Shown here: piece after piece, positions 4,840 through 23,174 of the stretch
Layout: each line of letters begins with the position of its first letter
Numbering within the stretch: the stretch's first letter is position 1
Source of the DNA: Clostridiales bacterium
Lineage (GTDB): Bacteria; Bacillota; Clostridia; Oscillospirales; Oscillospiraceae
Reading direction: 5' to 3'
NCBI GenBank assembly: GCA_022772585.1
Contig: JALEZN010000087.1
Span: 1-50,238, forward strand
Length of the DNA stretch: 50,238 nt
Notes under the pieces: generated by a model
The model's input: only the letters and a program-made list of their open reading frames with translations
Told to the model about the DNA's origin: nothing
The model's database searches: none
Program-made: the position numbers and the translations under genes

Positions 4840-4938
4840 ATCTGCAATCATTCCTTTTCGCTGAGCCTGTCAACTGCCATACTGCCTGTGCCGCGTATTT
4901 CTTTTCAAGCCGTGCCCGATATGACAAGGAGGGAGATC

Positions 4939-6150: not shown

Positions 6151-6241
6151 CGGTGGAGGGCCGTCCCTCACGCTCTTCCGCTTTCAAATAGATCCAAGCG
6201 GTAAATATAAAATTTTCCTATAAAATTGCACAAAATCCCGC

Positions 6242-6293
6242 AAAATATCTGCGGATCTGTTGTTCGTTTGAACAACAGATCCGCAGATATTTT
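6242..6293 (+). terminator. Rho-independent terminator after the CdaR-like gene
   Basis: Perfect 24-bp stem (arms 6242-6265 and 6270-6293) with a GTTT loop, ending in a T run. It isolates the regulator from the metabolic operon. Confidence 0.9.
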
Positions 6294-6460
6294 TGTCCAT
6301 CCATTATTATAATGCACAATGCTTTTCCCGGTCGGATTTAGTACCATTGTGTCGTAAAAAAGCACCTGCAGGTTCAATTCCCAAAGTGATGCCTCCAGGC
6401 CAGGGGCACCGTCTCCGCGGTGAAGCGCGCGGCAATTTATCATAATTGGGGGAATGTGAC
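6294..6460 (+). promoter_or_regulatory. Promoter/leader region of the carboxylate cluster
   Basis: A perfect -10 TATAAT sits at 6308-6313, but the position 17 bases upstream (6285-6290, inside the terminator arm) does not resemble TTGACA. A -10 without a -35 is what an activator-dependent promoter looks like and fits control by the CdaR-like protein. The leader of about 150 bases shows only weak dyads; I see no riboswitch. Confidence 0.45.
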
Positions 6461-7522: not shown

Positions 7523-7574
7523 GCGGTCTTTGTACCGTGTTGTGTGAGAGACAAAGAAGAAGGGAGTAAACAAA

Positions 7575-9056: not shown

Positions 9057-9087
9057 AAAATTTCCCGACAGAAGGGACTGAGACGCT

Positions 9088-10365
9088 ATGAGCAGAATGG
9101 CCATTGTTGGCTTCGGCGCCGCAGGATATAACGGCGCCAAGGCCGTGCGGCAGCTGTCTCCCGGAGCGGAGATCGACGTCTACTCCGACACCGCTCTGGG
9201 GCCGTACAATCCCATGCTCACTACCTACTATGTGAAGGGGGCCATCCCCTATGAGGCGATGTTCCCCTACGGCTCTCCGGAACAGGTCTGCGCGGAGCTG
9301 AAGCTGAACTATCATAAAAACCGTCCGGTGACCGGACTCCTTCCGGAAGAAAAAACTCTTTGCTTTGCCGACGGCGGCCGTGAGAAATACGACAAAATCC
9401 TGATCAGCACAGGGGCCTCCGCCATCATGCCGCCCATCCCGGGACTGGACCTGTCCGGCGTGATCAAAATGCGCACGGCGGAGGACGCCCTCCGTCTGAA
9501 GGGGATGCTGGACAGCGGGGCGGTAAAAAGCGGCCTCGTGATCGGCTCCTCCTGGGTCGGCATCAAGGTCGTGGAGGATCTGGTGGAACGGGGCGTCGCC
9601 TGCACCCTTGTGGACGGCGCCGACCAGATGTTCTGCACCGCCACCTTCAAGGAGACCGCCCGGCGCATCCAGCGGGATCTGGAGGCCATGGGCGTGACCG
9701 TCCGCTGCGGCCAGATGCTCTCCTGCATCCAGCGGGAGGAGGACGGCCGGCTCACCGCCGTCATGAAGAGCGGCGAGCGCTTCACTGCGGACACCGTGGC
9801 GGTGTGCATCGGCGTGCGGATGAATGTGGGGTTCCTCAAGGACAGCGGCATTGCCATAAACCGGGGCATTCTGGTGGACCGGCAGATGCGCACCAGCTGC
9901 CAGGGAATCTATGCGGCGGGCGACTGCTGTGAGGCTGTGGATATCCAGAGCGGCACGCCCCGGAACATCGGCGTCTGGTACAACGCGGTGCGCCAGGGCC
10001 TGACCGCCGGTACGAACATGGCCGGCGGCAGCATGGAATTCGACGCCAATGTTCTGGTGAATCTGGCCCACTACCTGCACTATGATTTCATCAGCATCGG
10101 AGACGTCAGCTCCTGCAGACCGTCGGACGAGGTCTATGAGTACGAGGACGGGCGGTATTACATTCGGGCCGCCCGGGACGGCCGGACCGTCAAGTGCATC
10201 AATATCATCGGAGCTGCGCTCTGCAGCGGCATCGTGAAGAACGCTTTTATCAAATCCATCGAAAGCCCCGATTCCGCGCTGAGCACCCAGACCATCTGTT
10301 TCCTGAAAAAAGAAGGGATTCCGGACGGCTTCATCAAATTCTTGGGAGGGGACCCTCTTGACTGA
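9088..10365 (+). CDS. NAD(P)H:FAD oxidoreductase (pyridine nucleotide-disulphide oxidoreductase class)
   Basis: 425 residues, cytosolic. N-terminal FAD motif GFGAAGYNGAK (residues 8-18), ISTGASAIMPPIPG near 106, central NAD-binding motif GLVIGSSWVGIKVVEDL near 150, and the second FAD motif GIYAAGDCCE near 272. No redox-active CxxxxC pair, so it resembles the flavin domain of NirB or rubredoxin/ferredoxin reductases. The stop overlaps the molybdenum-enzyme gene by eight bases. I infer that it passes electrons between NAD(P)H and the ferredoxin subunit two genes on. Confidence 0.85.
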   Translation: MSRMAIVGFGAAGYNGAKAVRQLSPGAEIDVYSDTALGPYNPMLTTYYVKGAIPYEAMFPYGSPEQVCAELKLNYHKNRPVTGLLPEEKTLCFADGGREKYDKILISTGASAIMPPIPGLDLSGVIKMRTAEDALRLKGMLDSGAVKSGLVIGSSWVGIKVVEDLVERGVACTLVDGADQMFCTATFKETARRIQRDLEAMGVTVRCGQMLSCIQREEDGRLTAVMKSGERFTADTVAVCIGVRMNVGFLKDSGIAINRGILVDRQMRTSCQGIYAAGDCCEAVDIQSGTPRNIGVWYNAVRQGLTAGTNMAGGSMEFDANVLVNLAHYLHYDFISIGDVSSCRPSDEVYEYEDGRYYIRAARDGRTVKCINIIGAALCSGIVKNAFIKSIESPDSALSTQTICFLKKEGIPDGFIKFLGGDPLD

Positions 10366-12517
10366 ACTGGAGAAAAAACTGAAAGCAAAGATCCCCGGGG
10401 AGGACACCGGCATCGAGATCAGGCACTCCCTGTGCGCCATCTGCAGCCCCAGCCACCACTGCGGCCTGGACTGCTACGTCAAGGACGGGAAGATCATCCG
10501 GGTGGAGGGCACGCCCGGCCATCCCTACAACCACGGCAAGCTCTGCACAAAGGGTTCCTCCCAGCGCAGCTATGTCTACCGCGAGGACCGCATCCGGACG
10601 CCCCTGAAGCGCGTGGGAGAGCGGGGCGAGGGGAAATTTGAACCCATCAGCTGGGATGAGGCCTACCGGATCATTGCCGAAAAGCTCAACCGGGTGAAGG
10701 AGGAGTACTCTCCCAACTCTGTCGTTTTCTACAGCGGCTACTCCAAGTGGTACCGGCCCATCTACCAGCGGTTCGCCTATGACTTCGGCAGCGTGAACTT
10801 CGGTACCGACGACAGCGTCTGCGCGGTCTCCATGAAAATGGGCAACAAGGTCACCGTGGGGGGCGGGGCCGCGCCTGACATGGCCCACGCAAAGACCTTC
10901 CTGGGCTGGAACTACGACGGCTACTACTCCCACCACCTGTCGGTGGAGGGGGTGCGCAAGCTGAAGGAGCGGGGCGGCAAGGTCATCATCATCGACATAC
11001 GGTATACCCCCGCCGCCAAAAACCTGGCCGACATTTTCCTGCAGATCAACCCCGGCACCGACGGCGCCCTGGCCCTGGGCATGGCCAAGCTCATCATCGA
11101 TAACGGCTGGGCCGACATGGATTACATCGAGAAGTACACCTACGGCTTTGAGCAGTATAAGGAGCTGGTGCAGCAGTATCCCCTGGAAAAGGTCAGCGAG
11201 ATCACCGGGCTCAAGCCGGAGGAGATCTACGAGGCCACCAAACTTTACGCCACCAACGGCCCGGCCTGTACCAACTTCTCGGCTTCCGCCCTGGTGCACC
11301 GCGTCAACGGCTTCAACACCAACCGGGCGATCCTGTGCCTCTCCGCGCTGACCGGCAACTACGACCGGGAGGGCGGCAATTACCCCGTCCCCGCCTCCTA
11401 TCTGCGGCAGCCCGCGGGCTTCAAAACCAGGGACGAGGAGTTCCGCAGCGCCCGCTATCCCGGCACCGCCGAGCGCATCGGCGCCCAGCGCTTCCCGCTG
11501 TGGAACGCCCAGTTTGACGAGTTCCAGGCCATGGATCTCCTGCGTCAGCTGGAGGAGGGTACGCCTTACCCCGTCAAGGCCATGTTCGCGCTGGGGTTCA
11601 ACGCCAAGATGTTCCCGGAGAGCGACCGGCTGCTGGAGGCAATGAAGGAGAAGCTGGACTTTATCGTGGATGTGGACCTCTTTATGAACATGTCCGCCAA
11701 GTATGCCGACATCGTGCTGCCTGCCTGCTCCTCGGTGGAGCGCAGCGAGCTCAAGTGCTACCGGGGCGGATACCTGGTGTATACCAAACCGGCCATCAAG
11801 CCCCTGTATGAGTCCAAGTCCGATGTGGATATCCTGTGTGAACTGGCCAGAGTCATGGACCTGGACGACGATCTGCTCAAGCAGGGGTATGAGGCCTGCC
11901 TGGACTGGATGATCGACGGCTGCGGCCTGACCATCGCCGATCTGAAAAAGAGCGACATGCCCATGAAGGTACCCACCGCCCAGTGGCCCGTCAAGCCCGG
12001 AAAATACCTGAAGGAGGGCTTCAAGACCTCCACCGGAAAGTTCGAGTTCTACTCCACCGCCATCGCGGCCATCGACCCCAGGTACGGTCTGGACCCGCTG
12101 CCCAGCTATGTGGATCCTCTCTTCGACCAGAACGACGAGGAGACCCGGAGGGACTACCCCTTCTGCCTGTGCACCGGCGCCCGCAAGGCCTACGCGATCC
12201 ACTCCCGCCTGCACGATACGCCGTGGATCCACAGCCTGCAGCCCGATCCCACCTGCGAGATCAACCGGCAGGACGCCGCCCGGCTGGGGCTCAGGGACGG
12301 AGATGACGCGACCCTCTCCAGCCCTTACGGCGAGATCCGTATGAAGGTAAAGACCACCAGCAAGATCAAGCCCGGCGTCATTATGGCTCTGCCCGGCTAT
12401 ACCCAGGCCAATGTGAACAACCTCCTGGGCCGGAATCACCTGGATCCCTACAGCGGCTTCCCGGGGTATAAGGGGATGCGCTGCAATATCAGCAAATATC
12501 AGGGGGCCAAAGCATGA
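10358..12517 (+). CDS. Molybdopterin-dependent oxidoreductase, DMSO-reductase family, cytosolic
   Basis: 719 residues without a Tat signal, so cytosolic. An N-terminal Fe-S motif is present with unusual spacing: Cys26, Cys29, Cys35, Cys39, and Cys63 in LCTKG; the typical pattern is CxxCxxxC. The molybdopterin domain follows, with the probable metal ligand Cys155 (TDDSVCAVSMKMG) at the position of the Cys/Sec in nitrate reductase and formate dehydrogenase. The C-terminal dinucleotide-binding domain starts near 590. Neighbours encode a flavoprotein and a DmsB-like ferredoxin, giving a three-subunit NADH-linked enzyme. It could be a reductase, dehydrogenase or hydratase; the substrate is unknown. 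Confidence 0.88.
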   Translation: MTELEKKLKAKIPGEDTGIEIRHSLCAICSPSHHCGLDCYVKDGKIIRVEGTPGHPYNHGKLCTKGSSQRSYVYREDRIRTPLKRVGERGEGKFEPISWDEAYRIIAEKLNRVKEEYSPNSVVFYSGYSKWYRPIYQRFAYDFGSVNFGTDDSVCAVSMKMGNKVTVGGGAAPDMAHAKTFLGWNYDGYYSHHLSVEGVRKLKERGGKVIIIDIRYTPAAKNLADIFLQINPGTDGALALGMAKLIIDNGWADMDYIEKYTYGFEQYKELVQQYPLEKVSEITGLKPEEIYEATKLYATNGPACTNFSASALVHRVNGFNTNRAILCLSALTGNYDREGGNYPVPASYLRQPAGFKTRDEEFRSARYPGTAERIGAQRFPLWNAQFDEFQAMDLLRQLEEGTPYPVKAMFALGFNAKMFPESDRLLEAMKEKLDFIVDVDLFMNMSAKYADIVLPACSSVERSELKCYRGGYLVYTKPAIKPLYESKSDVDILCELARVMDLDDDLLKQGYEACLDWMIDGCGLTIADLKKSDMPMKVPTAQWPVKPGKYLKEGFKTSTGKFEFYSTAIAAIDPRYGLDPLPSYVDPLFDQNDEETRRDYPFCLCTGARKAYAIHSRLHDTPWIHSLQPDPTCEINRQDAARLGLRDGDDATLSSPYGEIRMKVKTTSKIKPGVIMALPGYTQANVNNLLGRNHLDPYSGFPGYKGMRCNISKYQGAKA

Positions 12518-13041
12518 AATATGTGTTTGTATTTGACGAGGACCGGTGCTGTGCCTGCTCCGCCTGCATGATCGGATGTATGGACCAGAACGACGTGGAC
12601 CCCGCCGCGCAGGATCCCTGCTTCCGCAGGACCTTTGACGAGGAGATCGAGCAGGCCGACGGCAGTGTGTACTGCGCCTATCTCTCCGCGGCGTGCATGC
12701 ACTGTACCGACGCGCCCTGCATCGCCGCATGTCCGGTGGGCTGCCTCAGCAAGGATCCGGATACCGGCTTTACCATCTATGACAACACCAACTGCATCGG
12801 CTGCAAGAGCTGCGCCCTGGCCTGCCCCTTCGGCGCGCCGCGCTACCGTCCCTCCGACGGAAAAATGGTGAAGTGCGACGGCTGCAACACCCGGGTGAAA
12901 AACGGCCTGCAGCCCGCGTGCGTCCGTGCCTGCTCCTTCGGCGCGCTGACCTGCGTGCCTGAGGAGGAATATCTCTCCGGCAGCAGCGGCAAGGCGTGCA
13001 ATGCGCTCTTGTCCCAGATCGCCCCGAAAAAGACGATCTGA
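12514..13041 (+). CDS. Four-cluster ferredoxin subunit (DmsB/HycB-like)
   Basis: 175 residues with sixteen cysteines in the DmsB layout: Cys12-x2-Cys15-x2-Cys18-x3-Cys22, then CMHCTDAPCIAACPVGC, CIGCKSCALACPFG, and CDGC with ACVRACSFG. This predicts four [4Fe-4S] clusters. Its ATG overlaps the stop of the molybdenum subunit by four bases, so the two should be made in equal amount. It would carry electrons between the molybdenum site and the flavoprotein. It has no membrane anchor partner, unlike the respiratory Dms enzymes. Confidence 0.9.
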   Translation: MKYVFVFDEDRCCACSACMIGCMDQNDVDPAAQDPCFRRTFDEEIEQADGSVYCAYLSAACMHCTDAPCIAACPVGCLSKDPDTGFTIYDNTNCIGCKSCALACPFGAPRYRPSDGKMVKCDGCNTRVKNGLQPACVRACSFGALTCVPEEEYLSGSSGKACNALLSQIAPKKTI

Positions 13042-13125
13042 CCGGAGGCCTGTTTTCAACTGTGTGTCAAGCCCTTGGAGAGGGGCTTTAAAAACTACTA
13101 CTTTTATTGATACGAGGTGCGCAAC

Positions 13126-14526
13126 ATGACGGAGTATACCAAAGGGCTGTGCGACTTTATCACAAAACTGGAGTTCAAGGATCTGGCTCCGGAGCTGGTA
13201 GAAAAGGCAAAGATGCTCACCCTGCATGTGGTGGGCGCCGCCCTGGCGGGCAGGACCCTGCCCACGGCAGTCAGCGCCAGAAGTACGGCCCGGGCGGTGA
13301 TCGGCCAGTCCTCGGACATGATGTCCACCATGTGGGGCGAGCCCGGCAAGGTGCCCATGCACGGGGCCATCATGGCCAACGCCGTAGCCGCCGATACCCT
13401 GGACTGGGAGGACTGCAGCTACACCGGCCACCCCAGCGCCCACCTGATCTCGGTCTCCATGGCCATGACCGAGGCCATGCACAAGAGCGGTAAGGACTTT
13501 ATCACCGCGGTCATCGGCGGCTTTGAGGTGTATCAGCGCGTGGCCTGCTACATCCAGCCCACTCCCGAGTATAATACCAAAAAGTACGGCTGGGGCCTGG
13601 GTTCCTGGCAGATTTTCGCCGGCGCTCCCGCCGCCGGAAAGCTGCTTGGCTGCGACGCCGAGCAGTTCAACCTGCTGATGGGCGCCACCGCCTGTTCCAC
13701 CCCTGTGGTCAACGCCATTCTCGCTCAGCAGCATTCTGACTTCTATCATCTTCAGTACGCCATCACCAGCCTGACCGGCGTCATGGTGGCCGGCATGGCC
13801 AAGCGCAACGAGCTGGACAACATCTACAACGTTATGGATGTGGAATCCGGCTATCCCATGATGATGCGCGGTTTTGCCAACGAGGGCTGGATCGACCGCA
13901 ACGTGGGGACCGAGTATCTGTTCGGCGATCTTCTGCTCAAGCACTGGCCCTCCAACATGTGGATCCAGACGCCGCTGGACTGCCTGGACGAGCTGAAGCG
14001 GGCCCACGACTTCCAGCCGGATGAGATCGAGGAGATCTTCGTCAGTCCCACCTATCTGGAGCGGGACAAGTTCAGCTGGGACGGCTACGCCAGCTGCCGC
14101 GACGCTCAGTTCAGCATTCCTTACTGCCTGGCGGCCTACCTGCTGCGGGGCGCGCCCGGTCCCAACTGGTACGACGCCAGCCGCCTGGCGGACAAGTCCC
14201 TGCTGGAGCTGGCCTCCCGGGTCAAGATGGATCCGGACAATCTCCAGGATCTGACCGTGGCCTTCAGCATGTTCCAGAGCGGCTCCTTCCCCTCCACCAC
14301 CGTGCGCGTCACCCTGAAGGACGGACAGCAGTTTGAAAAGACCCTGCCCTTCCCCAAGGGTCATCCCAGGAACCCCTTCCAGTGGGAGGATGTGGAGCGC
14401 ACCTTCCGGGTGGGCGCCAAGGCCGCCAACCTGTCCGAGGGCAAGACCGCCCGCTTTATTGAGCTGTGCCATGTCATCGACCAGCTGGACGACATGTCCC
14501 AGCTGGCGGAGTGCCTGTCCCTGTAA
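13126..14526 (+). CDS. MmgE/PrpD family protein
   Basis: ATG 13126 preferred (MTEYTKGLCDFI); GAGG lies eight bases upstream and the GTG nine bases earlier has no better site. 466 residues, the normal family length. Family features: HGAIMANAVAADTLDWEDC near residue 85, GGFEVYQRVA near 130, and the C-terminal lid domain beginning near 270. Characterised members include 2-methylcitrate dehydratase, cis-aconitate decarboxylase and iminodisuccinate epimerase; all act on di- or tricarboxylates. The prp partners (methylcitrate synthase, methylisocitrate lyase) are absent, which argues against the methylcitrate cycle. Confidence 0.85.
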   Translation: MTEYTKGLCDFITKLEFKDLAPELVEKAKMLTLHVVGAALAGRTLPTAVSARSTARAVIGQSSDMMSTMWGEPGKVPMHGAIMANAVAADTLDWEDCSYTGHPSAHLISVSMAMTEAMHKSGKDFITAVIGGFEVYQRVACYIQPTPEYNTKKYGWGLGSWQIFAGAPAAGKLLGCDAEQFNLLMGATACSTPVVNAILAQQHSDFYHLQYAITSLTGVMVAGMAKRNELDNIYNVMDVESGYPMMMRGFANEGWIDRNVGTEYLFGDLLLKHWPSNMWIQTPLDCLDELKRAHDFQPDEIEEIFVSPTYLERDKFSWDGYASCRDAQFSIPYCLAAYLLRGAPGPNWYDASRLADKSLLELASRVKMDPDNLQDLTVAFSMFQSGSFPSTTVRVTLKDGQQFEKTLPFPKGHPRNPFQWEDVERTFRVGAKAANLSEGKTARFIELCHVIDQLDDMSQLAECLSL

Positions 14527-14584
14527 GCTCTAATCTCTTTAAAACAATCGCCGCAGCTCTTATCAGAAAGGATGTGGAAATAAT

Positions 14585-15301
14585 ATGTATGGCTGGAGAG
14601 CCAGAATCGGACTGATCAGCCCCATGCCGGGCGAAAATGTGGAGCACGCCTTTCACATTTATGCGCCGGACGGCGTCTCCTTCTCTTCCATGAAGATGCC
14701 TTTCCCAGACCCCACCCCTGAGGGGCTGAAGATCCTCACCGGTCAGTTGGAGGACACTGCGTCCAAATATAAGGGGCAAGATCTAGACCTGATTGTGTTC
14801 TGTTGCACCTCCGGCAGCTTTATTCAAGGTGTGGGCTGGGACAAGGAGTGCATGGAGCGTATCAAACAGGCCAGCGGTACGCCGGGCCTTACCACCAGCA
14901 CCGCCGTGTTAGAATCGCTCAACGCCCTGGGGGCCAGATCGCTGGCCGTACTAACCCCCTACCCCGACGCCACCAATGAAGCTGAGCGCAAATTCTTGGA
15001 AGATAACGGCTTTGAGGTCCGGACCATCCTAGGCATGGATATGTCCGGGGTTGAAAAGGGCCGCATCTACAATGCGGAGAAGCCTTTTTTGTATCGGAAC
15101 TCCGTGAAGATGGATCTGAAAGGGGCCGATGTGTTCTTCTTGAGTTGCATGGCTTTGGACACCCTGGGGCTGGTGGGCGATCTGGAGACAGATCTTGGCA
15201 TACCAGTGGTAACCAGTCATCAGGCAACCTTATGGAGCGCGCTGCGCCATTGCGGAATCAAAACTAGGCGGCCCCATTTGGGCAAACTGTTTGCCATCTG
15301 A
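14585..15301 (+). CDS. Asp/Glu racemase superfamily enzyme with two catalytic cysteines (maleate isomerase/racemase type)
   Basis: 238 residues, the size of maleate isomerases and arylmalonate decarboxylases. Cys74 lies in CCTSGSF and Cys188 in LSCMALDT, the two catalytic positions of the superfamily. Arylmalonate decarboxylase has Gly at the first site and Cys188 at the second, so two cysteines point to an isomerase or racemase. Last gene of the cluster, 58 bp after the PrpD gene. Codon use is less GC-biased than its neighbours (several TTA, CTA and TTG leucine codons), hinting at separate acquisition. Substrate unknown; cis-trans isomerisation of an unsaturated diacid would suit a PrpD partner. 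Confidence 0.82.
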   Translation: MYGWRARIGLISPMPGENVEHAFHIYAPDGVSFSSMKMPFPDPTPEGLKILTGQLEDTASKYKGQDLDLIVFCCTSGSFIQGVGWDKECMERIKQASGTPGLTTSTAVLESLNALGARSLAVLTPYPDATNEAERKFLEDNGFEVRTILGMDMSGVEKGRIYNAEKPFLYRNSVKMDLKGADVFFLSCMALDTLGLVGDLETDLGIPVVTSHQATLWSALRHCGIKTRRPHLGKLFAI

Positions 15302-15346
15302 TCGGGCGTCCCCACCGGGCATAACCTTTTTATATGAGATCTCAGA

Positions 15347-15393
15347 AGGCCGCCTGCGGCCCCGCCCATGCCGGGCAGGGCCGCAGGCGGCCT
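15347..15393. terminator. Terminator hairpin after the carboxylate cluster, inside the truncated dpaA end
   Basis: 21-bp GC-rich stem (15347-15367 with 15373-15393; one G-U type mismatch) and a five-base loop, followed by short TTT in the plus direction. DpaA homology stops about 20 bases to the right of it. Confidence 0.75.
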
Positions 15394-15413
15394 TTCCCAA
15401 TTCCCACATCCGC

Positions 15414-15758
15414 CCCTCCCGGCTTGGAGGCCAGGTCGATGACCAGACACCCCGGCTTCAGGTCCCGCAGGGCCTCCTCATCCAGCACCCGGGCCGGGAC
15501 AGTGTTCACCACCAGATCATACCCGCACAGCCACCCCTTGAGCTGTTCGGTGTGCTCCACGCCGTATCCCTCCGCCTCGATCCACGCCAGGTCGGCCCAC
15601 CTCCGGGCCGACACGCTGACCCTGGCGCCCATGCCTGCCAGCCGGGGGGCCAGAGTCCGGCCCAGCCTCCCATACCCGATCACCAGGACCCTGGCCCCCT
15701 GCAGCGTAATGGGCAGCTCCTCCAGGGCGATCTGGATGGCACCCTCGGCGGTAGGTAC
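15414..15758 (-). pseudogene. dpaA: dpaA (spoVFA) distal half, separated from its start and 3'-truncated
   Basis: The frame is open on the minus strand from at least 15782 to 15342. After the att core it reads TAEGAIQIALEELPITLQG, then the Rossmann motif VLVIGYGRLGRTLA, SARRWADLAWIEAEG, VVNTVPARVL and LVIDLASKPGG, which is the middle and C-terminal part of dipicolinate synthase subunit A. Homology ends near 15414. The last ~50 residues expected in the family (the stretch ending in LPG-VAP-TAG in B. subtilis) are absent, replaced by hairpin sequence. It has no ribosome site of its own. It can only be expressed with the proximal half at 22.78-23.17 kb after excision of the intervening DNA. Confidence 0.88.
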
Positions 15759-15763
15759 TGCGT
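15747..15763. other. Left attachment site (attL) of the dpaA intervening element
   Basis: Plus-strand GGCGG-T-AGGTAC-T-GCGT matches the right site at 15 of 17 positions, with AGGTAC (15753-15758) identical. The central GG is 15754-15755. The left arm GCGGTA belongs to dpaA, the right arm (with AGCGGTA at 15765-15771) to the element. Confidence 0.85.
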
Positions 15764-15787
15764 CAGCGGTATGGCCGCGCAAATCCG

Positions 15788-15816
15788 TTGCCCTCCCGGG
15801 GAAAAAACGCTATAAT
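15788..15816 (+). promoter_or_regulatory. Promoter of the element tetR gene
   Basis: -35 TTGCCC (15788-15793), 17-bp spacer, perfect -10 TATAAT (15811-15816). It lies 30 bp inside the left end of the element, 34 bases before the tetR ATG. Confidence 0.7.
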
Positions 15817-15849
15817 TGACCCGTAGCATATACAAAGGAGCGTGGGACC

Positions 15850-16470
15850 ATGGCAAAAAAGACCGCCCGCAATACCCGCGGCAAGATCGTCAGCGCCGCC
15901 TGGGAGCTGTTTTATGAGCAGGGTTACGAGCACACCACCGTGGAGGAGATCATCGACCTGTCCTGCACCTCCAAGGGTTCTTTTTACCATTACTTCGATG
16001 GAAAGGACGCGCTGCTGAGCACCCTCAGCGACCTGTTCGACGAGAAATACGAGGCGCTTCAGGAGAGCATGGCTCCCGGCATGACCGCCATGGAGCAGCT
16101 CCTTTTTCTCAACCGGGAGCTCTTTGCCATGATCGAGAGCAGCGTGTCCATGGACCTGCTGGCCCGGCTGCTGTCCACCCAGCTGGTGACCAGCGGCGAG
16201 AAGCACCTGCTCAACCACAAGCGCACCTACTACCGCCTGCTGCGGCGCATCATCTCGGCCGGACAGGCCTCGGGGGAGTTCTCTTCCGACCGCAGCGTCA
16301 ACAGCATGGTCAAGCTCTACGCTCTCAGCGAGCGGGCCCTGATGTACGACTGGTGCCTCTGCGGCGGGGAATACTCTCTGCGGGACTATGCCTCACAAGT
16401 GCTCCCAACTTTTTTGAGCGGCTTTCTTTCTGACTTTTCCCCTAAAGATCGTACAGGAGAAATTTATTGA
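15850..16470 (+). CDS. TetR/AcrR family regulator carried by the element
   Basis: 206 residues; AAAGGAG ribosome site upstream. The N-terminal helix-turn-helix domain is typical: GKIVSAAWELFYEQGYEHTT near residues 11-30 and TSKGSFYHYFDGKDALL near 43-59. The C-terminal ligand domain is not recognisable at family level. It stands directly before the symporter gene, with a perfect 32-bp palindrome between them that is the likely operator, so it probably represses the symporter until a ligand is present. Confidence 0.88.
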   Translation: MAKKTARNTRGKIVSAAWELFYEQGYEHTTVEEIIDLSCTSKGSFYHYFDGKDALLSTLSDLFDEKYEALQESMAPGMTAMEQLLFLNRELFAMIESSVSMDLLARLLSTQLVTSGEKHLLNHKRTYYRLLRRIISAGQASGEFSSDRSVNSMVKLYALSERALMYDWCLCGGEYSLRDYASQVLPTFLSGFLSDFSPKDRTGEIY

Positions 16471-16499
16471 TATTACAATAAATTTTGATATAGCTTCTT

Positions 16500-16531
16500 A
16501 ACGTGGTATAGACTATAGTCTATACCACGTT
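16500..16531. promoter_or_regulatory. Perfect 32-bp palindrome between tetR and symporter genes
   Basis: Arms of 16 bp (AACGTGGTATAGACTA and its exact complement) with no spacer, ending six bases upstream of the symporter -35 hexamer. Position and symmetry suit a TetR dimer operator. It could also fold as the tetR terminator, though no T run follows. Confidence 0.65.
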
Positions 16532-16536
16532 CTGTA

Positions 16537-16565
16537 TTGTGTTCTTGTTTTAGTCGTGTTATGAT
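16537..16565 (+). promoter_or_regulatory. Promoter of the symporter gene
   Basis: -35 TTGTGT (16537-16542), 17-bp spacer, -10 TATGAT (16560-16565), immediately downstream of the palindrome. Confidence 0.55.
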
Positions 16566-16643
16566 AGGTCCATTCTATTTCAGCGGAGCCGGCGAGACGG
16601 TGTGTACCGCCCCTCCGCGGCGCCTGTTTCGGGAGGGAACATC

Positions 16644-18188
16644 ATGACAACGGCACAATTCTGCATCATCTCAGCGATCATCATCTATCTGATCGGCATG
16701 GTCTATGTGGGCTTCTACTTCAGCCGCAAGGGCAGCGGCTCCTCGTCCGACGAATTCTATCTGGGCGGGCGGAAGCTGGGCCCCATCGTCACTGCCATGA
16801 GCGCCGAGGCCTCGGACATGAGCAGCTGGCTGCTCATGGGCCTGCCCGGTCTGGCATACCTGTGCGGCATCGCCGAGCCGGGCTGGACCGCCATCGGCCT
16901 GGCCGTGGGCACCTATCTCAACTGGCTCATCGTGGCCAAACGGCTGCGCCGCTACTCGGTACATACCGGCGCCATCACCATCCCCGATTTCTTCTCCCGC
17001 CGCTGGCGGGACGACCGCCATGTGCTCTCCTGCATTGCGGCTATCGTCATCCTGATCTTCTTCATCCCCTACACCGCCTCCGGCTTCAAGGCCGTAGGCA
17101 CCCTGTTCAATAGCCTCTTCGGCGTGGACTACCATGTAGCCATGATCGTAGGCGCCATTGTTATCATCGGCTACACCGTCCTGGGCGGCTTTCTGGCCGT
17201 ATCCACCACCGATCTGATCCAGAGCGTGGTCATGTCCATCGCACTGGTAATTATCGTGCTCTTCGGCATACAGCAGGCCGGCGGATGGTCCGCGGTGGCC
17301 GCCAACGCCAAAGAGCTGCCCGGTTATCTCGACCTGTTCCGGGGGTATAACGCCGCCCAGGGCACTGCCTCCTCCTACGGCGGGCTGAGCATCGCCTCCA
17401 CCCTGGCCTGGGGCCTGGGCTATTTCGGCATGCCCCACATCCTGCTGCGCTTCATGGCCATCGGCGACGAGAGCAAGCTCAAGACCTCCCGCCGCATCGC
17501 CTCGGTCTGGGTGGTCATCTCCATGTTCGTGGCCATCCTCATCGGCATCATCGGCTACAGCGTGTCCAAGGCCGGCAAGATCCCCATGTTCACCTCCACC
17601 TCGGAATCTGAGACCGTAATCGTCCAGCTCTCCAACCTGCTGAGTCAGAACGGTGTGTTTTTCGCCGTGGTAGCCGGCGTAGTTCTGGCGGGCATCCTGG
17701 CCAGCACCATGTCTACCGCTGATTCTCAGCTCCTCACCGCCGCCTCCAGCGTGTCTCAGGATCTGCTGCAGAGCTTCTTTGGGATCCGGATGAGCTCCCG
17801 GACCTCCATGCTGGCCGCCCGGGGCACCGTTATCGCCATTGCCCTGGTAAGCGTGATTCTGGCCTGGGACCCCTCCAGCTCGGTGTTCACCATCGTCTCC
17901 TTCGCCTGGGCGGGCTTCGGCGCCGCCTTCGGCCCGGTGATGCTCATGGCCCTGTTCTGGAAGCGGAGCAACAAGTGGGGCGCGCTGGCAGGTATGGTCA
18001 CCGGCGGCGTGATGGTCTTTGTGTGGAAATACGGCATCGCCAAACTGGGCGGGGCCTGGGCCATCTACGAGCTGCTGCCCGCCTTCCTGGCCGCCTGCGC
18101 GGCCATCGTGGTGGTCTCCCTCCTCACGCCTCCTCCCGCCCGGGAGATCTGCGACGAGTTCGATGCGGTCAACGCCGTGCGGAACTGA
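16644..18188 (+). CDS. Sodium:solute symporter (SSS family, PutP-like)
   Basis: ATG 16644 chosen with GGGAGGG six bases upstream (MTTAQFCIISAIIIYL). 514 residues and about thirteen transmembrane helices, as in PutP. Family marks: SSDEFYLGGRKLGPIVTAMS near residue 34, SAEASDMSSWLLMGLPG near 53-69, and ASTMSTADSQLLTAAS near 352-367, which carries the sodium-site serines. Sodium/proline symport is the closest guess, but SSS substrates vary. It is cargo of the dpaA intervening element and ends at a clear terminator. Confidence 0.88.
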   Translation: MTTAQFCIISAIIIYLIGMVYVGFYFSRKGSGSSSDEFYLGGRKLGPIVTAMSAEASDMSSWLLMGLPGLAYLCGIAEPGWTAIGLAVGTYLNWLIVAKRLRRYSVHTGAITIPDFFSRRWRDDRHVLSCIAAIVILIFFIPYTASGFKAVGTLFNSLFGVDYHVAMIVGAIVIIGYTVLGGFLAVSTTDLIQSVVMSIALVIIVLFGIQQAGGWSAVAANAKELPGYLDLFRGYNAAQGTASSYGGLSIASTLAWGLGYFGMPHILLRFMAIGDESKLKTSRRIASVWVVISMFVAILIGIIGYSVSKAGKIPMFTSTSESETVIVQLSNLLSQNGVFFAVVAGVVLAGILASTMSTADSQLLTAASSVSQDLLQSFFGIRMSSRTSMLAARGTVIAIALVSVILAWDPSSSVFTIVSFAWAGFGAAFGPVMLMALFWKRSNKWGALAGMVTGGVMVFVWKYGIAKLGGAWAIYELLPAFLAACAAIVVVSLLTPPPAREICDEFDAVNAVRN

Positions 18189-18210
18189 CTGTCTCCCTCT
18201 GTTTTCTGCA

Positions 18211-18247
18211 AAGCGGTACGTTTCCCTTCGGAACGTACCGCTTTTTT
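18211..18247 (+). terminator. Terminator of the symporter gene
   Basis: Stem of 12 bp (AAGCGGTACGTT paired with AACGTACCGCTT) followed by TTTTTT. Confidence 0.9.
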
Positions 18248-18320
18248 GTCTGCTCCCTGTGCGCTCTTGCATTGCCGCAATATTGTGCTAAAATGTGTGG
18301 CGTAAAGGAAGTGAGCCGTT

Positions 18321-19241
18321 ATGGATCTGGATCTGGAATTGAGGCAGGAGGGCGTGGATCCCGGCCTGCTGGAGGAGATCGGGCAGTTCCGCGCCCGCCA
18401 CACCCTGACTCCCGGCATGGAACGCCGGGTCCCCAGCCCCCGGTTTCTCTATTACGGCAGGGAGATCTGGGAGGCGGCGGCCGCCGCGCTGCTGTGCGGG
18501 GAGAACCTGCTGCTGGTGGGCCCCAAGGCCACCGGCAAGAACGTGCTGGCTGAAAACCTCTCCGCTGTTTTCGGCCGCCCCGCTTGGGACATATCCTTCT
18601 ACATCAATGTGGACGCGGCCTCCCTCATCGGCACCGATACCTTCCGGGACGGGCAGGTGGTTTTCCGCCGGGGGCCCATCAGCCAGTGCGCCCTGGAGGG
18701 GGGCTTCGGCATCCTGGACGAAATCAACATGGCCAAAAATGAGTCTCTGGCCGTGCTCCACGCCACGCTGGACTTCCGCCAGGCCATCGACGTGCCCGGC
18801 TACGACCGTATCCCCCTCCACGACGCCGCCCGCTTCATCGCCACCATGAACTACGGCTATGCCGGCACACGGGAGCTCAACGAGGCGCTGGCCTCCCGCT
18901 TTGTTGTCATCAATATGCCGGTCATCACCAGGGACAACCTGAAAAAACTCCTCAAACGGGAATTTCCACGCCTGCGGGAGGAATGGGCCGAGCAGCTTGC
19001 CCAACTCTTCGCCGATCTGGAGACCAAGTGTGACAGCGCCGAGATCTCCACCAAGTCCCTGGACCTGCGGGGCCTGCTCTCGGCGGTGCGCCTGATGGAA
19101 AAGGGGCTGTCCGCCGGGGCCGCCCTGGAGATGGGCATCGTCAACAAGGCCTTTGATCCCTTTGAGCGGCAGCTGGTGGCCGATGTGATCTCCGCCCGGG
19201 TGCCCCAGGGGCTGGACCGGCGCAAACTTTTCGAGGCGTGA
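18321..19241 (+). CDS. MoxR-type AAA+ ATPase
   Basis: 306 residues. Walker A GPKATGKN at residues 74-81, Walker B GILDEINMAK near 131-140, sensor region IATMNYGYAG near 172, and an Arg-finger region NEALASRF near 186. This fits the AAA_5/MoxR-CbbQ-NorQ group, chaperone-like ATPases that act with a VWA-domain partner to insert cofactors or remodel targets. The partner gene follows one base after the stop. No obvious client enzyme is encoded nearby, so the target is unknown. Confidence 0.88.
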   Translation: MDLDLELRQEGVDPGLLEEIGQFRARHTLTPGMERRVPSPRFLYYGREIWEAAAAALLCGENLLLVGPKATGKNVLAENLSAVFGRPAWDISFYINVDAASLIGTDTFRDGQVVFRRGPISQCALEGGFGILDEINMAKNESLAVLHATLDFRQAIDVPGYDRIPLHDAARFIATMNYGYAGTRELNEALASRFVVINMPVITRDNLKKLLKREFPRLREEWAEQLAQLFADLETKCDSAEISTKSLDLRGLLSAVRLMEKGLSAGAALEMGIVNKAFDPFERQLVADVISARVPQGLDRRKLFEA

Positions 19242-19242
19242 C

Positions 19243-20961
19243 ATGGCCAACCGTGAGATCGAAGAGCGCCGGGCCGCCAATCTGATCTGGAACGCCGCCC
19301 GGGACTACTCCATCCGTCCGGAGTATGAGGCCTTTGACCGGGACGGCAGGGCCGACCTCTACTTCAACAACATCATCGGCGCGGTGTACCGCTATTACGA
19401 CTTCGACCGGTTCGCCGCACTGTTCCACTACTTCCAGCAGAAGCCGGACGGCGCGCTCTACGCCGACCTCTTCTGGCTGGGGCTGGAGAACTGCGCCTTT
19501 GCCCGGGCCAGCGCTCAGCGGCCCGCCCTGGCTCCCCTCCGGGAGGAATACGCCCGGGACATCCTCAAACAGGATCAGGTCCGCCAGGACCGGGAGCTGA
19601 TGGTCAACATCCGCCTGGGCCACTACCGCCGGGTGCTGGGCCGGGACGCAGGGCTGAGCGCCTATGAGACCCGGCTGCTGGACGCGGTGGAGTTCTCCCC
19701 CGATCTGACCACCGAACAGGTGGTCAGGCAGATGAACCGGGTGCTGGACACCTTCTTTCTCAACCGCACCTTCCGGGAACTGGACGACATGGGCGGAAGC
19801 CGGGTCAGCAAGCAGGGCTTCCGTCTGCCCTGGCGGGCCAGGGCCAGCAGCAGCGCCGTGCGGCAGATCAGCTGGTCGGGAGGCGTGGGAGGCCAAAACG
19901 GCGGCCCGCCCATGCCGCAGAAAAAGGTCCGCTCCCCCCTGTGGTTCTCCAGGCCCAATGAAGAAGCGCTGCGGGCCTATGTGGAAAACTGCTTCGGTGC
20001 GTCCATGTTCCGCCTCACCGAGACGGTGGAGCTGGAAGAGGCCCTGTGCACCGGCAATCACCGGGACTGCCACCTCCATTTCACCCGGGGTCGCTTCCCC
20101 GCCGGTGCCCCGCCCAGGGGGGAGGGGAAGCGGCTGCGGCTCTTCGTCCAGCAGCAGCGTGAGATCAACCGGGCCTACTTTCAGGCGCACATGACCGAGA
20201 CCCTCATCACCACCGCCCGGCTCACCGAGCGCATCCGCAACTCCATCCTCCTGCGGCTGGAGCCGGACGAGCTCAGAGCCCGCTCGGGCGTCCTGCTGCC
20301 CGGCCAGGTCTGGCGCACGCAGGAGCTCCATGACGGCCGGGTCTTTCTCAAGACCCTTCAGAGCGAGATGGGCAACCTGACGGTGGACATCCTGCTGGAC
20401 GGCTCCGCCTCCCAGCGGGAGCAGCAGGCCCGGGTGGCCACCCAGGGCTATATCATCGCCGAGAGCCTGACCCGGTGCCGCATTCCGGTGCGGGTGACCT
20501 CCTTCTGCAGCGTCAGCGGCTGCACGGTGCTCCACATCCTCCGGGATTACGGCGAGCAGGACGCCAACCGCAGCATTTTCGACTACACCGCCATGGGCTG
20601 GAACCGGGACGGGCTGGCCGTCCGGGCGGTGGGCAGGCTGATGGAGCGGGAGCGGTGCGAGCACCGGCTGCTCATCATCCTCTCCGACGCCAATCCCAAC
20701 GACGACCAGAAACTCCCCCGGGACAGCTTCTTCCGGGCGGGCCGTGACTACAGCGGGGAGCCGGGGGTGAAGGATGTGGCCGCCGAGGTCAGCGCCCTGC
20801 GCAAAAAGGGCGTATGGGTGCTGTGCGTCTTTACCGGCGGCGACCTGGAGCTTCCCGCCGCCCGGACCATCTACGGAAAGGACCTGGCCCGCATCCGCTC
20901 GGTGAGCTGGTTTGCCGACACGGTGGGCCGCCTGATCCAGGACCGCATCCGGGAGCTCTGA
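19243..20961 (+). CDS. VWA-domain protein, partner of the MoxR ATPase
   Basis: 572 residues, cytosolic, no signal peptide. The N-terminal 370 residues are helical and charged without a fold I recognise. A C-terminal von Willebrand A domain starts near residue 383 with the metal-site motif DGSAS (DxSxS) and continues with LLIILSDANPND near 480. The arrangement matches CbbO/NorD/CoxE-type adaptors, which couple MoxR ATPases to their targets. The stop is followed within 24 bases by the hairpin that covers the ribosome site of the next ORF. Confidence 0.82.
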   Translation: MANREIEERRAANLIWNAARDYSIRPEYEAFDRDGRADLYFNNIIGAVYRYYDFDRFAALFHYFQQKPDGALYADLFWLGLENCAFARASAQRPALAPLREEYARDILKQDQVRQDRELMVNIRLGHYRRVLGRDAGLSAYETRLLDAVEFSPDLTTEQVVRQMNRVLDTFFLNRTFRELDDMGGSRVSKQGFRLPWRARASSSAVRQISWSGGVGGQNGGPPMPQKKVRSPLWFSRPNEEALRAYVENCFGASMFRLTETVELEEALCTGNHRDCHLHFTRGRFPAGAPPRGEGKRLRLFVQQQREINRAYFQAHMTETLITTARLTERIRNSILLRLEPDELRARSGVLLPGQVWRTQELHDGRVFLKTLQSEMGNLTVDILLDGSASQREQQARVATQGYIIAESLTRCRIPVRVTSFCSVSGCTVLHILRDYGEQDANRSIFDYTAMGWNRDGLAVRAVGRLMERERCEHRLLIILSDANPNDDQKLPRDSFFRAGRDYSGEPGVKDVAAEVSALRKKGVWVLCVFTGGDLELPAARTIYGKDLARIRSVSWFADTVGRLIQDRIREL

Positions 20962-20984
20962 GCCCTCTATTCATATGGTCCCGC

Positions 20985-21043
20985 CCTCCCTTCATAGGCT
21001 AAAACGGCCTCTGGCCGATCCAACCTATGAAGGGAGGCTTTTT
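20985..21043 (+). promoter_or_regulatory. Hairpin covering the ribosome site of the recombinase operon
   Basis: Perfect 14-bp inverted repeat CCTCCCTTCATAGG (20985-20998) and CCTATGAAGGGAGG (21024-21037), with an inner CGGCC-TCT-GGCCG stem, then TTTTTT. The right arm contains the AGGGAGG ribosome site of the 46-aa ORF. It is both a plausible terminator for the MoxR-VWA operon and a lock on translation of any read-through transcript. CATAGGCTA at 20993-21001 matches the sigma-K -10 pattern CATAnnnTA; a start from it would omit the left arm, but I see no matching -35. Confidence 0.7.
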
Positions 21044-21044
21044 T

Positions 21045-21185
21045 ATGTATCTTCCCCCGTCCCATCCCCTCCGCACCAGGGTCCGGGCCGCTCTCATCCG
21101 GGAGCTGGGCCGCGCCGGGGTCATCACCTCTTCCCAGCAGGAGCGGCTGCTGGCCCTGTCCCTGCCGGGGGAGGGCCGCCCGTGA
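21045..21185 (+). CDS. 46-residue protein upstream of and coupled to the recombinase
   Basis: ATG 21045 follows AGGGAGG by seven bases. The product (MYLPPSHPLRTRVRAALIRE...) is basic in its first half and has a helical SHOCT-like pattern LIRELGRAGVITSSQQERLL at residues 17-36. Its stop overlaps the recombinase GTG as GTGA. It may be a partner of the recombinase, possibly the directionality factor needed for excision, by analogy with the small factor required for C. difficile skin excision. Function is inference; no homologue recognised with certainty. Confidence 0.6.
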   Translation: MYLPPSHPLRTRVRAALIRELGRAGVITSSQQERLLALSLPGEGRP

Positions 21186-22747
21186 CCGGGGAACTCCGGG
21201 TGGCCGCCTACTGCCGGGTGTCCACCGACGGGGAGGACCAGGTCCACTCCCTGGAGAGCCAGCGGACCTATTTTCTCGATTACATCCGCGCCCACCCCGG
21301 CTGGACCTTCGCCGGGATCTACGCCGACGAGGGCGTCTCAGGCACCAGCACCCGGCGGCGGGAGGCTTTCCGCTCCATGATGGCCGACGCCGAAGCGGGA
21401 AAGCTGGACCTGCTGCTGACCAAGGAGGTCTCCCGCTTTGCCCGCAACACGGTGGACGCCCTGGCCTGTACCCGCACCCTGAAGGCCCTGGGGGTGGGGG
21501 TGCTCTTTCTCACCGACGGCATCGATACCCGGGACAACGATGGAGAGCTGCGCCTGACCCTCATGGCCAGCATGGCCCAGGAGGAATCCCGCAGGACCTC
21601 CCAGCGGGTCAAATGGGGACAGAAGCGCCGGATGGAGGCCGGCGTGGTCTTCGGCAGCGACTCCACCTACGGCTTTCACACCAAAAACGGCGCCCTGACC
21701 GTCTTGGAGGAAGAGGCGGAGGTGGTCCGGCACATCTACTGCAAATTCCTTCAGGAGGGCAAGGGCACCTATATCATCGCCCGGGAGCTCTTTGAGGAGG
21801 GGGTGCCTCCGCCCCGCTCCCCCAGCGGCAGGTGGTCCTCCTCCATGGTGCTTCGGGTGCTGCGCAACGAAAAATACGCCGGCGACCTTCTCCAGAAAAA
21901 ATACGTCACCGTGGACTACCTCACCCACCGGAAGGTGGTCAACCGGGGGCAGGAGGAGCAGATCCTTCTCCGGGACCACCACGCCCCCATCGTGGACCGG
22001 GAGACATGGGATGCCGTGCAGCGGGAGCTGGACCGCCGCTCCGCCGCCCGGGGGGACGGGAGCAAATACTCCAACCGCTACTGGTGCTCCGGCAAGCTGC
22101 GCTGCGGCGCCTGCGGCGGGACTTTTCTCCCCCGGTCCGCCCGGCGGCCGGACGGAACGGTCTACCGGGCCTGGGGCTGCCGGGGCCGGCTGCGCCCCGC
22201 CCCCGGCACCGCCCCGTGCTCCATGCCCATGGTCAACCACCGGACGCTGGAGACCTGCGTGCGCTTTCTCCTTTCCCGGCTGGGCCTGGACCTGGAGGCC
22301 ATGGCGGAGGAGCTGGCTGACGATATTCTGCGCCTGTCCGCCTCCCCCGGCCAGGAGGAGGCCGCCCGGCTGCGGGAGCGGCTCTCCGCCCTGGAGCGGC
22401 GTCAGGCCCGGGCCCTGGAGGGCTATCTCTCCGGCGTCCTCAGCGGCGAAGAGCTCTCCGCCCTCCGGGAGCAGTGCGGCCTGGAGCGGCAGGCCCTGGA
22501 ACGGCGGCAAAAAGAGCTCGTTTCTCCCCCGCCCCCGCCGGATGAGGCAGCGCTGCGGGCCGCCGTCACGGCTGCCCTCTCCTCGCCCCAGGAGGTTTTT
22601 CGCGCGGCGGTGGAGGAGATCGTGGTCCGGCCCGGCTGCCTTCAGATCCGTCTTTTTTCCCTGCCGGAGACCTTCTTCCTCCGCTACACCACCCGGGGCG
22701 CCGGGGAGAGCTACGTTACCACGGTCGAAGAATTCCGGGTGCTCTGA
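21182..22747 (+). CDS. Large serine recombinase (SpoIVCA-like)
   Basis: GTG 21182 chosen: GGGGGAGGG lies seven bases upstream and the protein then starts VTGELRVAAYCRVSTDGEDQ with catalytic Ser14. 521 residues. The resolvase domain (1-150) shows GVSGTSTRRREAF and EVSRFARNTVD. A recombinase domain follows (~165-270; STYGFHTKNG, RVLRNEKYAGDLLQKKYV), then a zinc ribbon (CGACGG near 317 with later C and C), and a C-terminal coiled coil (~395-450). It ends 31 bases from the right att core, the normal place for an integrase. In skin-like systems the protein is made in the mother cell to excise the element. Confidence 0.95.
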   Translation: MTGELRVAAYCRVSTDGEDQVHSLESQRTYFLDYIRAHPGWTFAGIYADEGVSGTSTRRREAFRSMMADAEAGKLDLLLTKEVSRFARNTVDALACTRTLKALGVGVLFLTDGIDTRDNDGELRLTLMASMAQEESRRTSQRVKWGQKRRMEAGVVFGSDSTYGFHTKNGALTVLEEEAEVVRHIYCKFLQEGKGTYIIARELFEEGVPPPRSPSGRWSSSMVLRVLRNEKYAGDLLQKKYVTVDYLTHRKVVNRGQEEQILLRDHHAPIVDRETWDAVQRELDRRSAARGDGSKYSNRYWCSGKLRCGACGGTFLPRSARRPDGTVYRAWGCRGRLRPAPGTAPCSMPMVNHRTLETCVRFLLSRLGLDLEAMAEELADDILRLSASPGQEEAARLRERLSALERRQARALEGYLSGVLSGEELSALREQCGLERQALERRQKELVSPPPPPDEAALRAAVTAALSSPQEVFRAAVEEIVVRPGCLQIRLFSLPETFFLRYTTRGAGESYVTTVEEFRVL

Positions 22748-22754
22748 GCCGTCC

Positions 22755-23174
22755 TCATGCCTCTACCGCTAAGGCGGCAGGTACCGCGTTGGCTACCGCC
22801 AGCTCTTCCCGGGCAAAATAGTCGTGCAGGGTGATGCCCCGCCGCTCCGCCATGGCCTCGGTGCGGCAGTCCACCCGCCCGGCGCACACCACCTGGCCCG
22901 GACGCAGCCGGTCCAGCAGCAGCGCCAGGGAAAAACTGCCGCCGGACAGAGGGGCGTTGAGCACGCCGCCCTCTCCCGTCACCGGGAGCGGAAGCACCAC
23001 GCAGTCGGCCAGCTCCACTCCCTCCAGTTCCTCTTCCTGTTCCACGCCCTCCAGCTCTCCCGCGCGCTCCAGAGCAAAGGCGTGGACCGTATGGCCGTCC
23101 ATGGCCAGTTGTTCCGCCAGGCGGGCCTGCCGCTGGTCGCCCCCCAGCACCCAGATGTTCCACTCTTGTCTCAT
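22755..23174 (-). pseudogene. dpaA: dpaA (spoVFA) proximal half, interrupted
   Basis: ATG at 23174 with GGAGG eight bases upstream. Residues 1-132 are DpaA: WVLGGDQRQARLAEQL near 8, VVLPLPVTGEGGVLNAPLS near 59, and DYFAREELAVANAVP at 118-132. After the att core the frame enters element sequence and stops after seven more residues (AALAVEA), giving a 139-residue truncated product. DpaA with DpaB makes dipicolinic acid from the dihydrodipicolinate-pathway intermediate in the mother cell during sporulation. The remaining sequence lies 7 kb away at 15.41-15.76 kb. Confidence 0.9.
22773..22789. other. Right attachment site (attR) of the dpaA intervening element
   Basis: Plus-strand GGCGG-C-AGGTAC-C-GCGT. 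Core AGGTAC at 22779-22784 with central GG at 22780-22781. Right of the core is dpaA (TACCGCG overlapping the core), left is element, including TACCGCT at 22764-22770. Confidence 0.85.

What the first reader, a model, noticed from the sequence alone, without database searches (positions are those of the whole stretch)
15414..23174. dpaA (dipicolinate synthase A) is split by a 7-kb serine-recombinase element: a new skin-like sporulation element
The N-terminal 132 residues of DpaA (23174 to 22779) and its middle/C-terminal part (15758 to 15414) are on the same strand in order, 7,026 bp apart. Joining them at the shared AGGTAC gives AREELAVANAVP-TAEGAIQIALEE, in frame and identical in pattern to DpaA of other spore formers. 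The DNA between ends in a serine recombinase 31 bp from one junction. Sporulation-controlled excision of such elements is established for sigK (skin), spoVFB (vfbin) and spsM; I know of none in dpaA.
Basis: partly seen in the sequence, partly recalled or inferred. Interest (0 to 1): 0.96.

Follow-up and report, generated by a model that had tools for sequence, protein, structure and literature searches.

The report
Spore gene dpaA in three pieces
In this bacterium dpaA, a gene for the spore-protecting compound dipicolinic acid, is cut into three pieces by two inserts that each carry a recombinase gene, and 35 relatives are cut at one or both of the same places; the inserts are likely removed while a spore forms, which would make the gene whole again in a cell that then dies.

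Summary
dpaA is split near residue 132 by a 7,026-bp insert and again near residue 246 by a second insert of about 20,955 bp that runs off the window. The last 45 residues, followed by dpaB, lie on contig C125, whose end overlaps the window start by exactly 141 bases. Each insert has its own large serine recombinase beside a junction and att-like ends: a 2-bp core (CC or GG) between inverted arms.

Surveys found 36 genomes in three families of the order with dpaA split at one or both of these two sites, 8 at both (9 of the 36 by profile position only). Many relatives keep it whole. Joining at the cores gives an open full-length DpaA in 24 of 27 genomes read in detail; the other three could not be joined. 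Recombinases form two clades that match the site. Two genome pairs sharing a split keep low dN/dS (0.08, 0.17). In two genomes the only dapB or dapF match lies inside an insert.

Best reading: skin-like elements excised in the mother cell. Excision itself is untested. Nine searches of open-licence papers found no dpaA element.

The parts
22780..23174 (-). dpaA piece 1 (N-terminal), up to the CC core
   Evidence: NF006162 positions 2-137, Pfam DpaA_N; core
22780..22781 (-). site I left core CC (attL-like): GCGGTA-CC-TGCCGC
15754..22779 (.). insert I, predicted excised circle of 7,026 bp
   Evidence: core to core
21182..22747 (+). large serine recombinase of insert I (GTG start inferred; ORF opens at 20975)
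   Evidence: Pfam Resolvase, Recombinase, Zn_ribbon_recom; start read
21027..21185 (+). 52-codon ORF overlapping the recombinase start by 4 nt; candidate directionality factor (inferred)
   Evidence: no Pfam or NCBIfam match
19243..20961 (+). VWA-type (CobT_C-like) protein, insert I cargo
   Evidence: E 2.1e-5
18321..19241 (+). AAA ATPase, insert I cargo
   Evidence: Pfam AAA_5
16602..18188 (+). sodium:solute (PutP-like) symporter, insert I cargo
   Evidence: Pfam SSF; TIGR02121 just below cut-off
15850..16470 (+). TetR-type regulator, insert I cargo
   Evidence: Pfam TetR_N
15754..15755 (-). site I right core CC (attR-like): CGCAGTA-CC-TACCGC
15415..15755 (-). dpaA piece 2 (middle), CC core to GG core
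   Evidence: NF006162 positions 132-251; cores
15415..15416 (-). site II left core GG; its partner is at C125:38913-38914, outside the window
1..15414 (.). window part of insert II (about 20,955 bp; the rest is C125 38913-44453, with the second recombinase at C125 39041-40678)
14585..15301 (+). Asp/Glu racemase / arylmalonate decarboxylase-like protein, insert II cargo
   Evidence: Pfam Amdase
13117..14526 (+). MmgE/PrpD family protein, insert II cargo
10358..13041 (+). molybdopterin oxidoreductase (10358-12517) and 4Fe-4S protein (12514-13041), insert II cargo
9088..10365 (+). FAD/NAD oxidoreductase, insert II cargo
7575..9056 (+). 493-aa ORF without a family match, insert II
6446..7522 (+). 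octopine dehydrogenase-like protein, insert II cargo
4888..6150 (+). CdaR/PucR-type regulator, insert II cargo
3797..4783 (-). aldose 1-epimerase-like protein, insert II cargo
53..3459 (-). LIV transporter genes: substrate-binding protein 2260-3459 and two permeases (named by eye); LivG-like ATPase continues on C125
1..141 (.). exact overlap with the end of contig C125
23360..26183 (+). outer flank kept in the genus: TIGR04255 protein, pncA-like (by eye), nicotinate phosphoribosyltransferase

Best explanation
dpaA is interrupted at two fixed sites by two different skin-like elements, each with its own large serine recombinase, and both are likely excised in the mother cell during sporulation, which would rejoin the three pieces into one working gene for dipicolinate synthase subunit A. 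Shown by sequence: three pieces on one strand in order, base-exact cores, inverted-repeat insert ends, a recombinase in each insert, whole dpaA in relatives, and an open full-length frame after joining at the cores. Inferred: each recombinase acts only at its own site (CC at site I, GG at site II); the small ORF before it is the directionality factor; expression is limited to the mother cell; the spore chromosome keeps the inserts, so the arrangement is inherited. Because the mother cell dies, inserts can hold host metabolic genes, sometimes apparently the only copy.
For: Three pieces found by profile, dpaB next to the third; contigs overlap by 141 bases. Same two sites in 27 genomes read in detail and 9 more by profile position. 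All three pieces in order on one contig in G140, G157, G394 and single-contig G167. Open joined frame in 24 of 27. Site-matched recombinase clades: 18 and 13 rows, support 100/100, 0 of 500 shuffles. A recombinase within 500 bp of a junction in 14 of 14 site II and 15 of 21 site I inserts. dN/dS 0.077 and 0.167 in two pairs that share a split, against 0.18-0.36 in three intact pairs. Class-specific small ORFs. Sole dapB match of G001 and sole dapF match of G157 inside inserts. Spo0A in 11 of 12 genomes, and sigK itself in two pieces in 4 of 12.
Against: No excision has been seen: the profile search found no rejoined dpaA in the split assemblies. Promoter scan weak: full sigma-E pattern 0 of 33 (0.12 expected), full sigma-K 1 of 33 (0.23 expected), only the sigma-K -10 half-pattern enriched, 8 of 33 against 1.75, one of five patterns tried. 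G311 has its pieces in an order that simple excision cannot join. G572 shows two stops within its first matched stretch, not examined further. G000 has no Spo0A match at 1e-30. The small ORF was not seen before 8 of 20 site I and 2 of 13 site II recombinases.
Confidence: 0.85

Rival explanations
1. Excision is random or stress-induced, as in ordinary mobile elements, and not tied to sporulation; only cells that happen to have lost the inserts make proper spores.
For: Serine recombinases and att sites alone would allow it; no firm sporulation promoter was found; a sequence cannot show timing.
Against: The inserts of G001 and G157 hold the only dapB or dapF match of those assemblies, so loss during growth should be costly. 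Eight genomes would need two such losses in one cell.
Confidence: 0.08
2. The insertions simply killed dpaA and the pieces are decaying remains.
For: Nobody has shown these strains to make DPA; G158 has a frameshift, G572 shows two stops within its matched first stretch, and G311 is rearranged.
Against: Open joined frame in 24 of 24 genomes where joining could be done; dN/dS 0.077 at dS 0.40 in G097/G220, which share both splits.
Confidence: 0.05
3. The pieces are made as separate polypeptides that assemble into a working enzyme.
For: Site I lies just after the DpaA_N domain, a plausible break between domains.
Against: Site II leaves a 45-residue end piece. The middle piece of G000 has no ATG close to its junction; its ORF opens at TTG 15782 inside the insert. 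Precise att cores and recombinases would be unexplained.
Confidence: 0.01
4. Assembly artefact or contamination.
For: G000 has 153 contigs and 8.26% contamination, and its third piece is on another contig.
Against: Contigs overlap by 141 bases, outer flanks match the genus, and other genomes, one of them a single contig, show the same three-piece layout.
Confidence: 0.01

Closest known systems
vfbin in spoVFB (dpaB) of Bacillus weihenstephanensis (passages in PMC4191935 and PMC10747680; original paper not read)
   Same: Insert in the partner subunit gene of the same enzyme, excised in sporulation, serine recombinase.
   Different: Other subunit gene, other host group, one insert, and described as carrying phage-related genes.
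skin in sigK of Bacillus subtilis and Clostridioides difficile (passages in PMC5025042)
   Same: Large serine recombinase beside a junction; gene restored by precise excision in the mother cell; small directionality factor in C. difficile.
   Different: Prophage-like and one insert in one gene; here two sites in one gene and, in the G000 ORFs scanned, no phage domains.
gin in gerE of Bacillus cereus (abstract, introduction and discussion of PMC5595907 read)
   Same: No phage genes, serine recombinase plus a small accessory factor, short core within inverted-repeat ends.
   Different: One target site and three recombinases in one 28.6-kb element; here one recombinase lineage per site.
SPbeta in spsM and yin in yabG (passages in PMC4191935 and PMC10747680)
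   Same: Insert in a sporulation gene, excisable as a circle.
   Different: Prophage or prophage-like; single site.
Heterocyst elements of cyanobacteria (mentioned in a passage of PMC5025042)
   Same: Genes rejoined by excision in a specialised cell; the XisF model is among the matches of both G000 recombinases, below cut-off.
   Different: Other organisms, genes and differentiation.

Membership tests
Sporulation-gene intervening elements (skin, vfbin, vrin, SPbeta, gin, yin) | Insert lies within a gene used in sporulation | tested here: met
   dpaA pieces by profile; the sporulation role of DpaA is established knowledge, not tested
Sporulation-gene intervening elements (skin, vfbin, vrin, SPbeta, gin, yin) | Precise empty site; joining restores the frame | tested here: met
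   24 of 27 joined in frame, 3 not resolvable; whole gene in 6 of 10 genomes of the genus
Sporulation-gene intervening elements (skin, vfbin, vrin, SPbeta, gin, yin) | Large serine recombinase encoded in the insert | tested here: met
   26 of 27 split genomes; Pfam domains for insert I of G000; NCBIfam matches for insert II
Sporulation-gene intervening elements (skin, vfbin, vrin, SPbeta, gin, yin) | att sites with a short core between inverted arms | tested here: met
   CC and GG cores; perfect 12-bp inverted repeat at the joined ends of insert II of G000
Sporulation-gene intervening elements (skin, vfbin, vrin, SPbeta, gin, yin) | Recombination directionality factor | tested here: inconclusive
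   Class-specific small ORF before 12 of 20 site I and 11 of 13 site II recombinases; activity unknown
Sporulation-gene intervening elements (skin, vfbin, vrin, SPbeta, gin, yin) | Sporulation sigma-factor control of recombinase or RDF | tested here: inconclusive
   Only a half-pattern enriched, 8 of 33 against 1.75 expected; full patterns not
Sporulation-gene intervening elements (skin, vfbin, vrin, SPbeta, gin, yin) | Excision in sporulating mother cells | not testable with these tools
   Needs cultures or raw reads; no rejoined copy in the assemblies
Prophage or prophage remnant (as skin, vfbin, yin) | Phage genes in the insert | tested here: not met
   No phage domain in the ORFs scanned of both G000 inserts; C125 ORF 40979-42925 and the inserts of other genomes were not scanned for this

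The most novel reading that the evidence does not exclude
dpaA is a standing two-site landing pad for programmed DNA elimination across an order of anaerobic spore formers. Two orthogonal recombinase lineages, each with its own small directionality protein, keep the gene in up to three exons, and with a split sigK some species must make three excisions to finish one spore. Since the mother cell is a disposable soma, the eliminated DNA has become a safe home for host genes, including sole copies of DAP-pathway genes needed for growth, which locks the inserts into the germ line.
Probability: 0.7. Interest if true: 0.94.

Novelty: new variant of a known kind. Interest (0 to 1): 0.9.

Why it matters
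Gene rejoining during sporulation is known from scattered cases, one insert per gene in those seen here. In this order one gene is hit repeatedly at two base-exact sites, which gives a natural series of whole, one-cut and two-cut species with two recombinase systems. That makes it testable why such elements persist and whether they regulate sporulation. It also warns that dpaA can look truncated or missing in genomes that may still make normal spores. Inserts holding the only dapB or dapF would be a bacterial parallel to a soma that discards genes its germ line needs. The two recombinase classes with clear att sites are also candidate DNA tools.

Tried and rejected
Rejected: two pieces only (third found); artefact. 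In one search, 8 of 31 genomes were not counted as splits: G158 (frameshift, pieces 12 bp apart), G016, G070, G080 and G161 (near-whole gene plus other hits), G040 and G043 (long matches plus another), and G228 (first and last pieces only). In one search, G606, G483, G530, G430 and G527 were not splits. Genomes with one partial match were not followed up, except G586, and those place lists were cut, so split counts are lower bounds. The 9 splits rest on profile positions; their junction letters were not read. Tree rows dropped: ORFs under 400 aa (two of G111, one 192-aa ORF of G031, a truncated copy of a G394 recombinase) and a duplicate of G140; two G053 recombinases and one extra G292 ORF were left unlabelled, and the latter drew a long-branch warning. 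Phage comparison was made for the site II recombinase only: 1,010 of 50,697 records match, all under 60% identity, best listed about 33%. Literature: searches showed no dpaA or spoVFA element; only open-licence papers are held and no bioRxiv preprints.
Full report
What was claimed and what is there. That is correct. The pieces match dipicolinate synthase A by profile: NF006162 positions 2-137 and 132-251, and Pfam DpaA_N. The two CC cores end at 22780 and 15754, 7,026 bp apart. It stops at profile position 251 of 297 and runs into unrelated DNA.

The third piece. A profile search of the window's own genome finds the missing end at G000:C125:38786-38914(-), positions 248-290. dpaB follows directly (NF006161 and TIGR02852 over cut-off), and a second large serine recombinase lies directly upstream. 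The last 141 bases of C125 equal the first 141 bases of the window, inside a LIV transporter cluster that continues across the join. The second insert is therefore about 20,955 bp: window 15414-1 plus C125 44453-38913. The outer flanks, a TIGR04255 protein, a pncA-like gene and nicotinate phosphoribosyltransferase upstream and dpaB downstream, are those found beside whole dpaA in the genus.

Att anatomy. At site I the piece ends read GCGGTA-CC-TGCCGC and CGCAGTA-CC-TACCGC; joined they give GCGGTA-CC-TACCGC, whose arms are perfect inverted repeats. At site II the insert ends put together read CCCACATCCGCC-GG-GGCGGATGTGGG, a perfect 12-bp inverted repeat around GG; G001 has the same layout with partly different letters. 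A dinucleotide core within inverted arms is what PMC5595907 describes for serine recombinases (discussion). By eye, the insert arms at site I fall into several sequence classes although the target is the same.

How widespread. In the genus, dpaA is whole in 6 of 10 genomes, split at site I in G000, G002 and G003, and at site II in G000 and G001. In 400 genomes of the family, 315 had a match. Of these, 31 with two or more matches, besides G000, G001 and G002, were looked at one by one, and 23 were splits. In 247 genomes of the order, 211 had a match. Of 15 followed up (14 of them from that survey, plus G228), 9 were splits, in two other families, judged by profile position. That makes 36 split genomes: 25 with site I, 19 with site II, 8 with both (G000, G056, G097, G140, G157, G167, G220, G394). 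No third insertion site was seen among these. In G140, G157, G394 and the single-contig genome G167 all three pieces are in order on one contig. In G311 the order is one that simple excision cannot join.

Is the gene still under selection? Pieces of 27 genomes were read in detail. In 24 the joined gene is open and 276-290 codons long from the first profile position. In G038, G056 and G111 a core was not found or sequence is missing. Of 18 pairs compared, G097/G220, which share both splits, have dN/dS 0.077 (dS 0.40), and G189/G394, which share site II, have 0.167. Three intact pairs give 0.18-0.36. The other pairs, split or mixed, give 0.12-0.37, and one is saturated. That is not decay.

Recombinases. 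With a profile built from four of them, a recombinase ORF was found in 26 of 27 split genomes. All 14 site II inserts have one within 500 bp of a junction. At site I the script gave 14 of 21; G140's own, 290 bp away on an overlapping locus, makes 15. In G023, G031, G053 and G167 it is 2.2-6.4 kb away, and in G038 and G056 none was recovered. A tree of 34 rows puts 18 site I and 13 site II recombinases in two groups with support 100/100; 0 of 500 label shuffles were as clean. Just before many of them lies a small ORF. Two families were picked by eye, one per class: 12 ORFs for 20 site I recombinases and 11 for 13 site II. In leave-one-out searches 12 of 12 site I members (E at most 4e-5) and 10 of 11 site II members (E at most 0.011; G001 0.077) were found again, and no member of the other class scored below E 2. 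Picking by eye inflates this test. They are candidate directionality factors only.

Cargo. The ORFs scanned in the G000 inserts are regulators, a symporter, an AAA/VWA pair, a LIV transporter and oxidoreductases, with no phage domain. Other inserts also hold host genes: dapA in G001, lysA in G157, thiH in G189, mgsA in G220, all over cut-off. The only dapB match of G001 (98% complete) is at C5:47441-48016, and the only dapF match of G157 (97% complete) at C1:18171-18983, both inside site II inserts. If these are truly sole copies, excision in a growing cell would be costly, whereas the mother cell has no future to lose.

Mechanism. The likeliest reading is that both inserts are excised in the mother cell, as reported for skin, vfbin, gin and SPbeta (PMC5595907 sections; passages of PMC5025042, PMC4191935, PMC10747680). 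That step is inferred. The setting fits: Spo0A is over cut-off in 11 of 12 genomes (not G000), and sigK is itself in two pieces in G000, G002, G140 and G157. Against it stand the lack of any rejoined copy in the split assemblies, the weak promoter scan, and G311 and G572.

Known or new. The kind is known. dpaA as target, two sites in one gene, site-matched recombinase clades and host genes as cargo did not turn up in the nine paper searches, which cover open-licence papers only.

Noticed in passing
G000:C130:4-330 and C11:19039-19389; G002:C19; G140:C2; G157:C4: sigK is also in two pieces in 4 of 12 genomes searched, broken near profile positions 108-119 (7.0-15.6 kb apart where both pieces share a contig), so G000, G140 and G157 may need three excisions.
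   Followed up: partly
L038 7344-9831, L096 6872-9177, L108 6855-9161; window 15850-18188: The TetR and PutP-like genes inside insert I of G000 have close relatives just upstream of whole dpaA in three other genomes, as if local DNA had moved into the insert.
   Followed up: partly
G001:C5:47441-49101; G157:C1:18171-20500: DAP-pathway genes (dapB and dapA; dapF and lysA) sit inside dpaA inserts in two genera; the same pathway supplies the DPA precursor. Chance or not is open.
   Followed up: partly
G311:C10:132375-132770 and 393814-394293: dpaA pieces lie in an order that simple excision cannot join: rearrangement or misassembly.
   Followed up: no
site I junctions: By eye, insert ends at site I fall into several arm classes (for example GGACAC..GTGTCC and TTAGCGGTA..TACCGCTAA) while the target stays the same, suggesting several recombinase specificities at one attB.
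   Followed up: partly
G000 insert II against G001 insert II: The two homologous site II recombinases sit at opposite ends of their inserts.
   Followed up: no
G000 assembly: No Spo0A match at 1e-30 and no dapB match at 1e-10 in G000; missing sequence or true absence.
   Followed up: no
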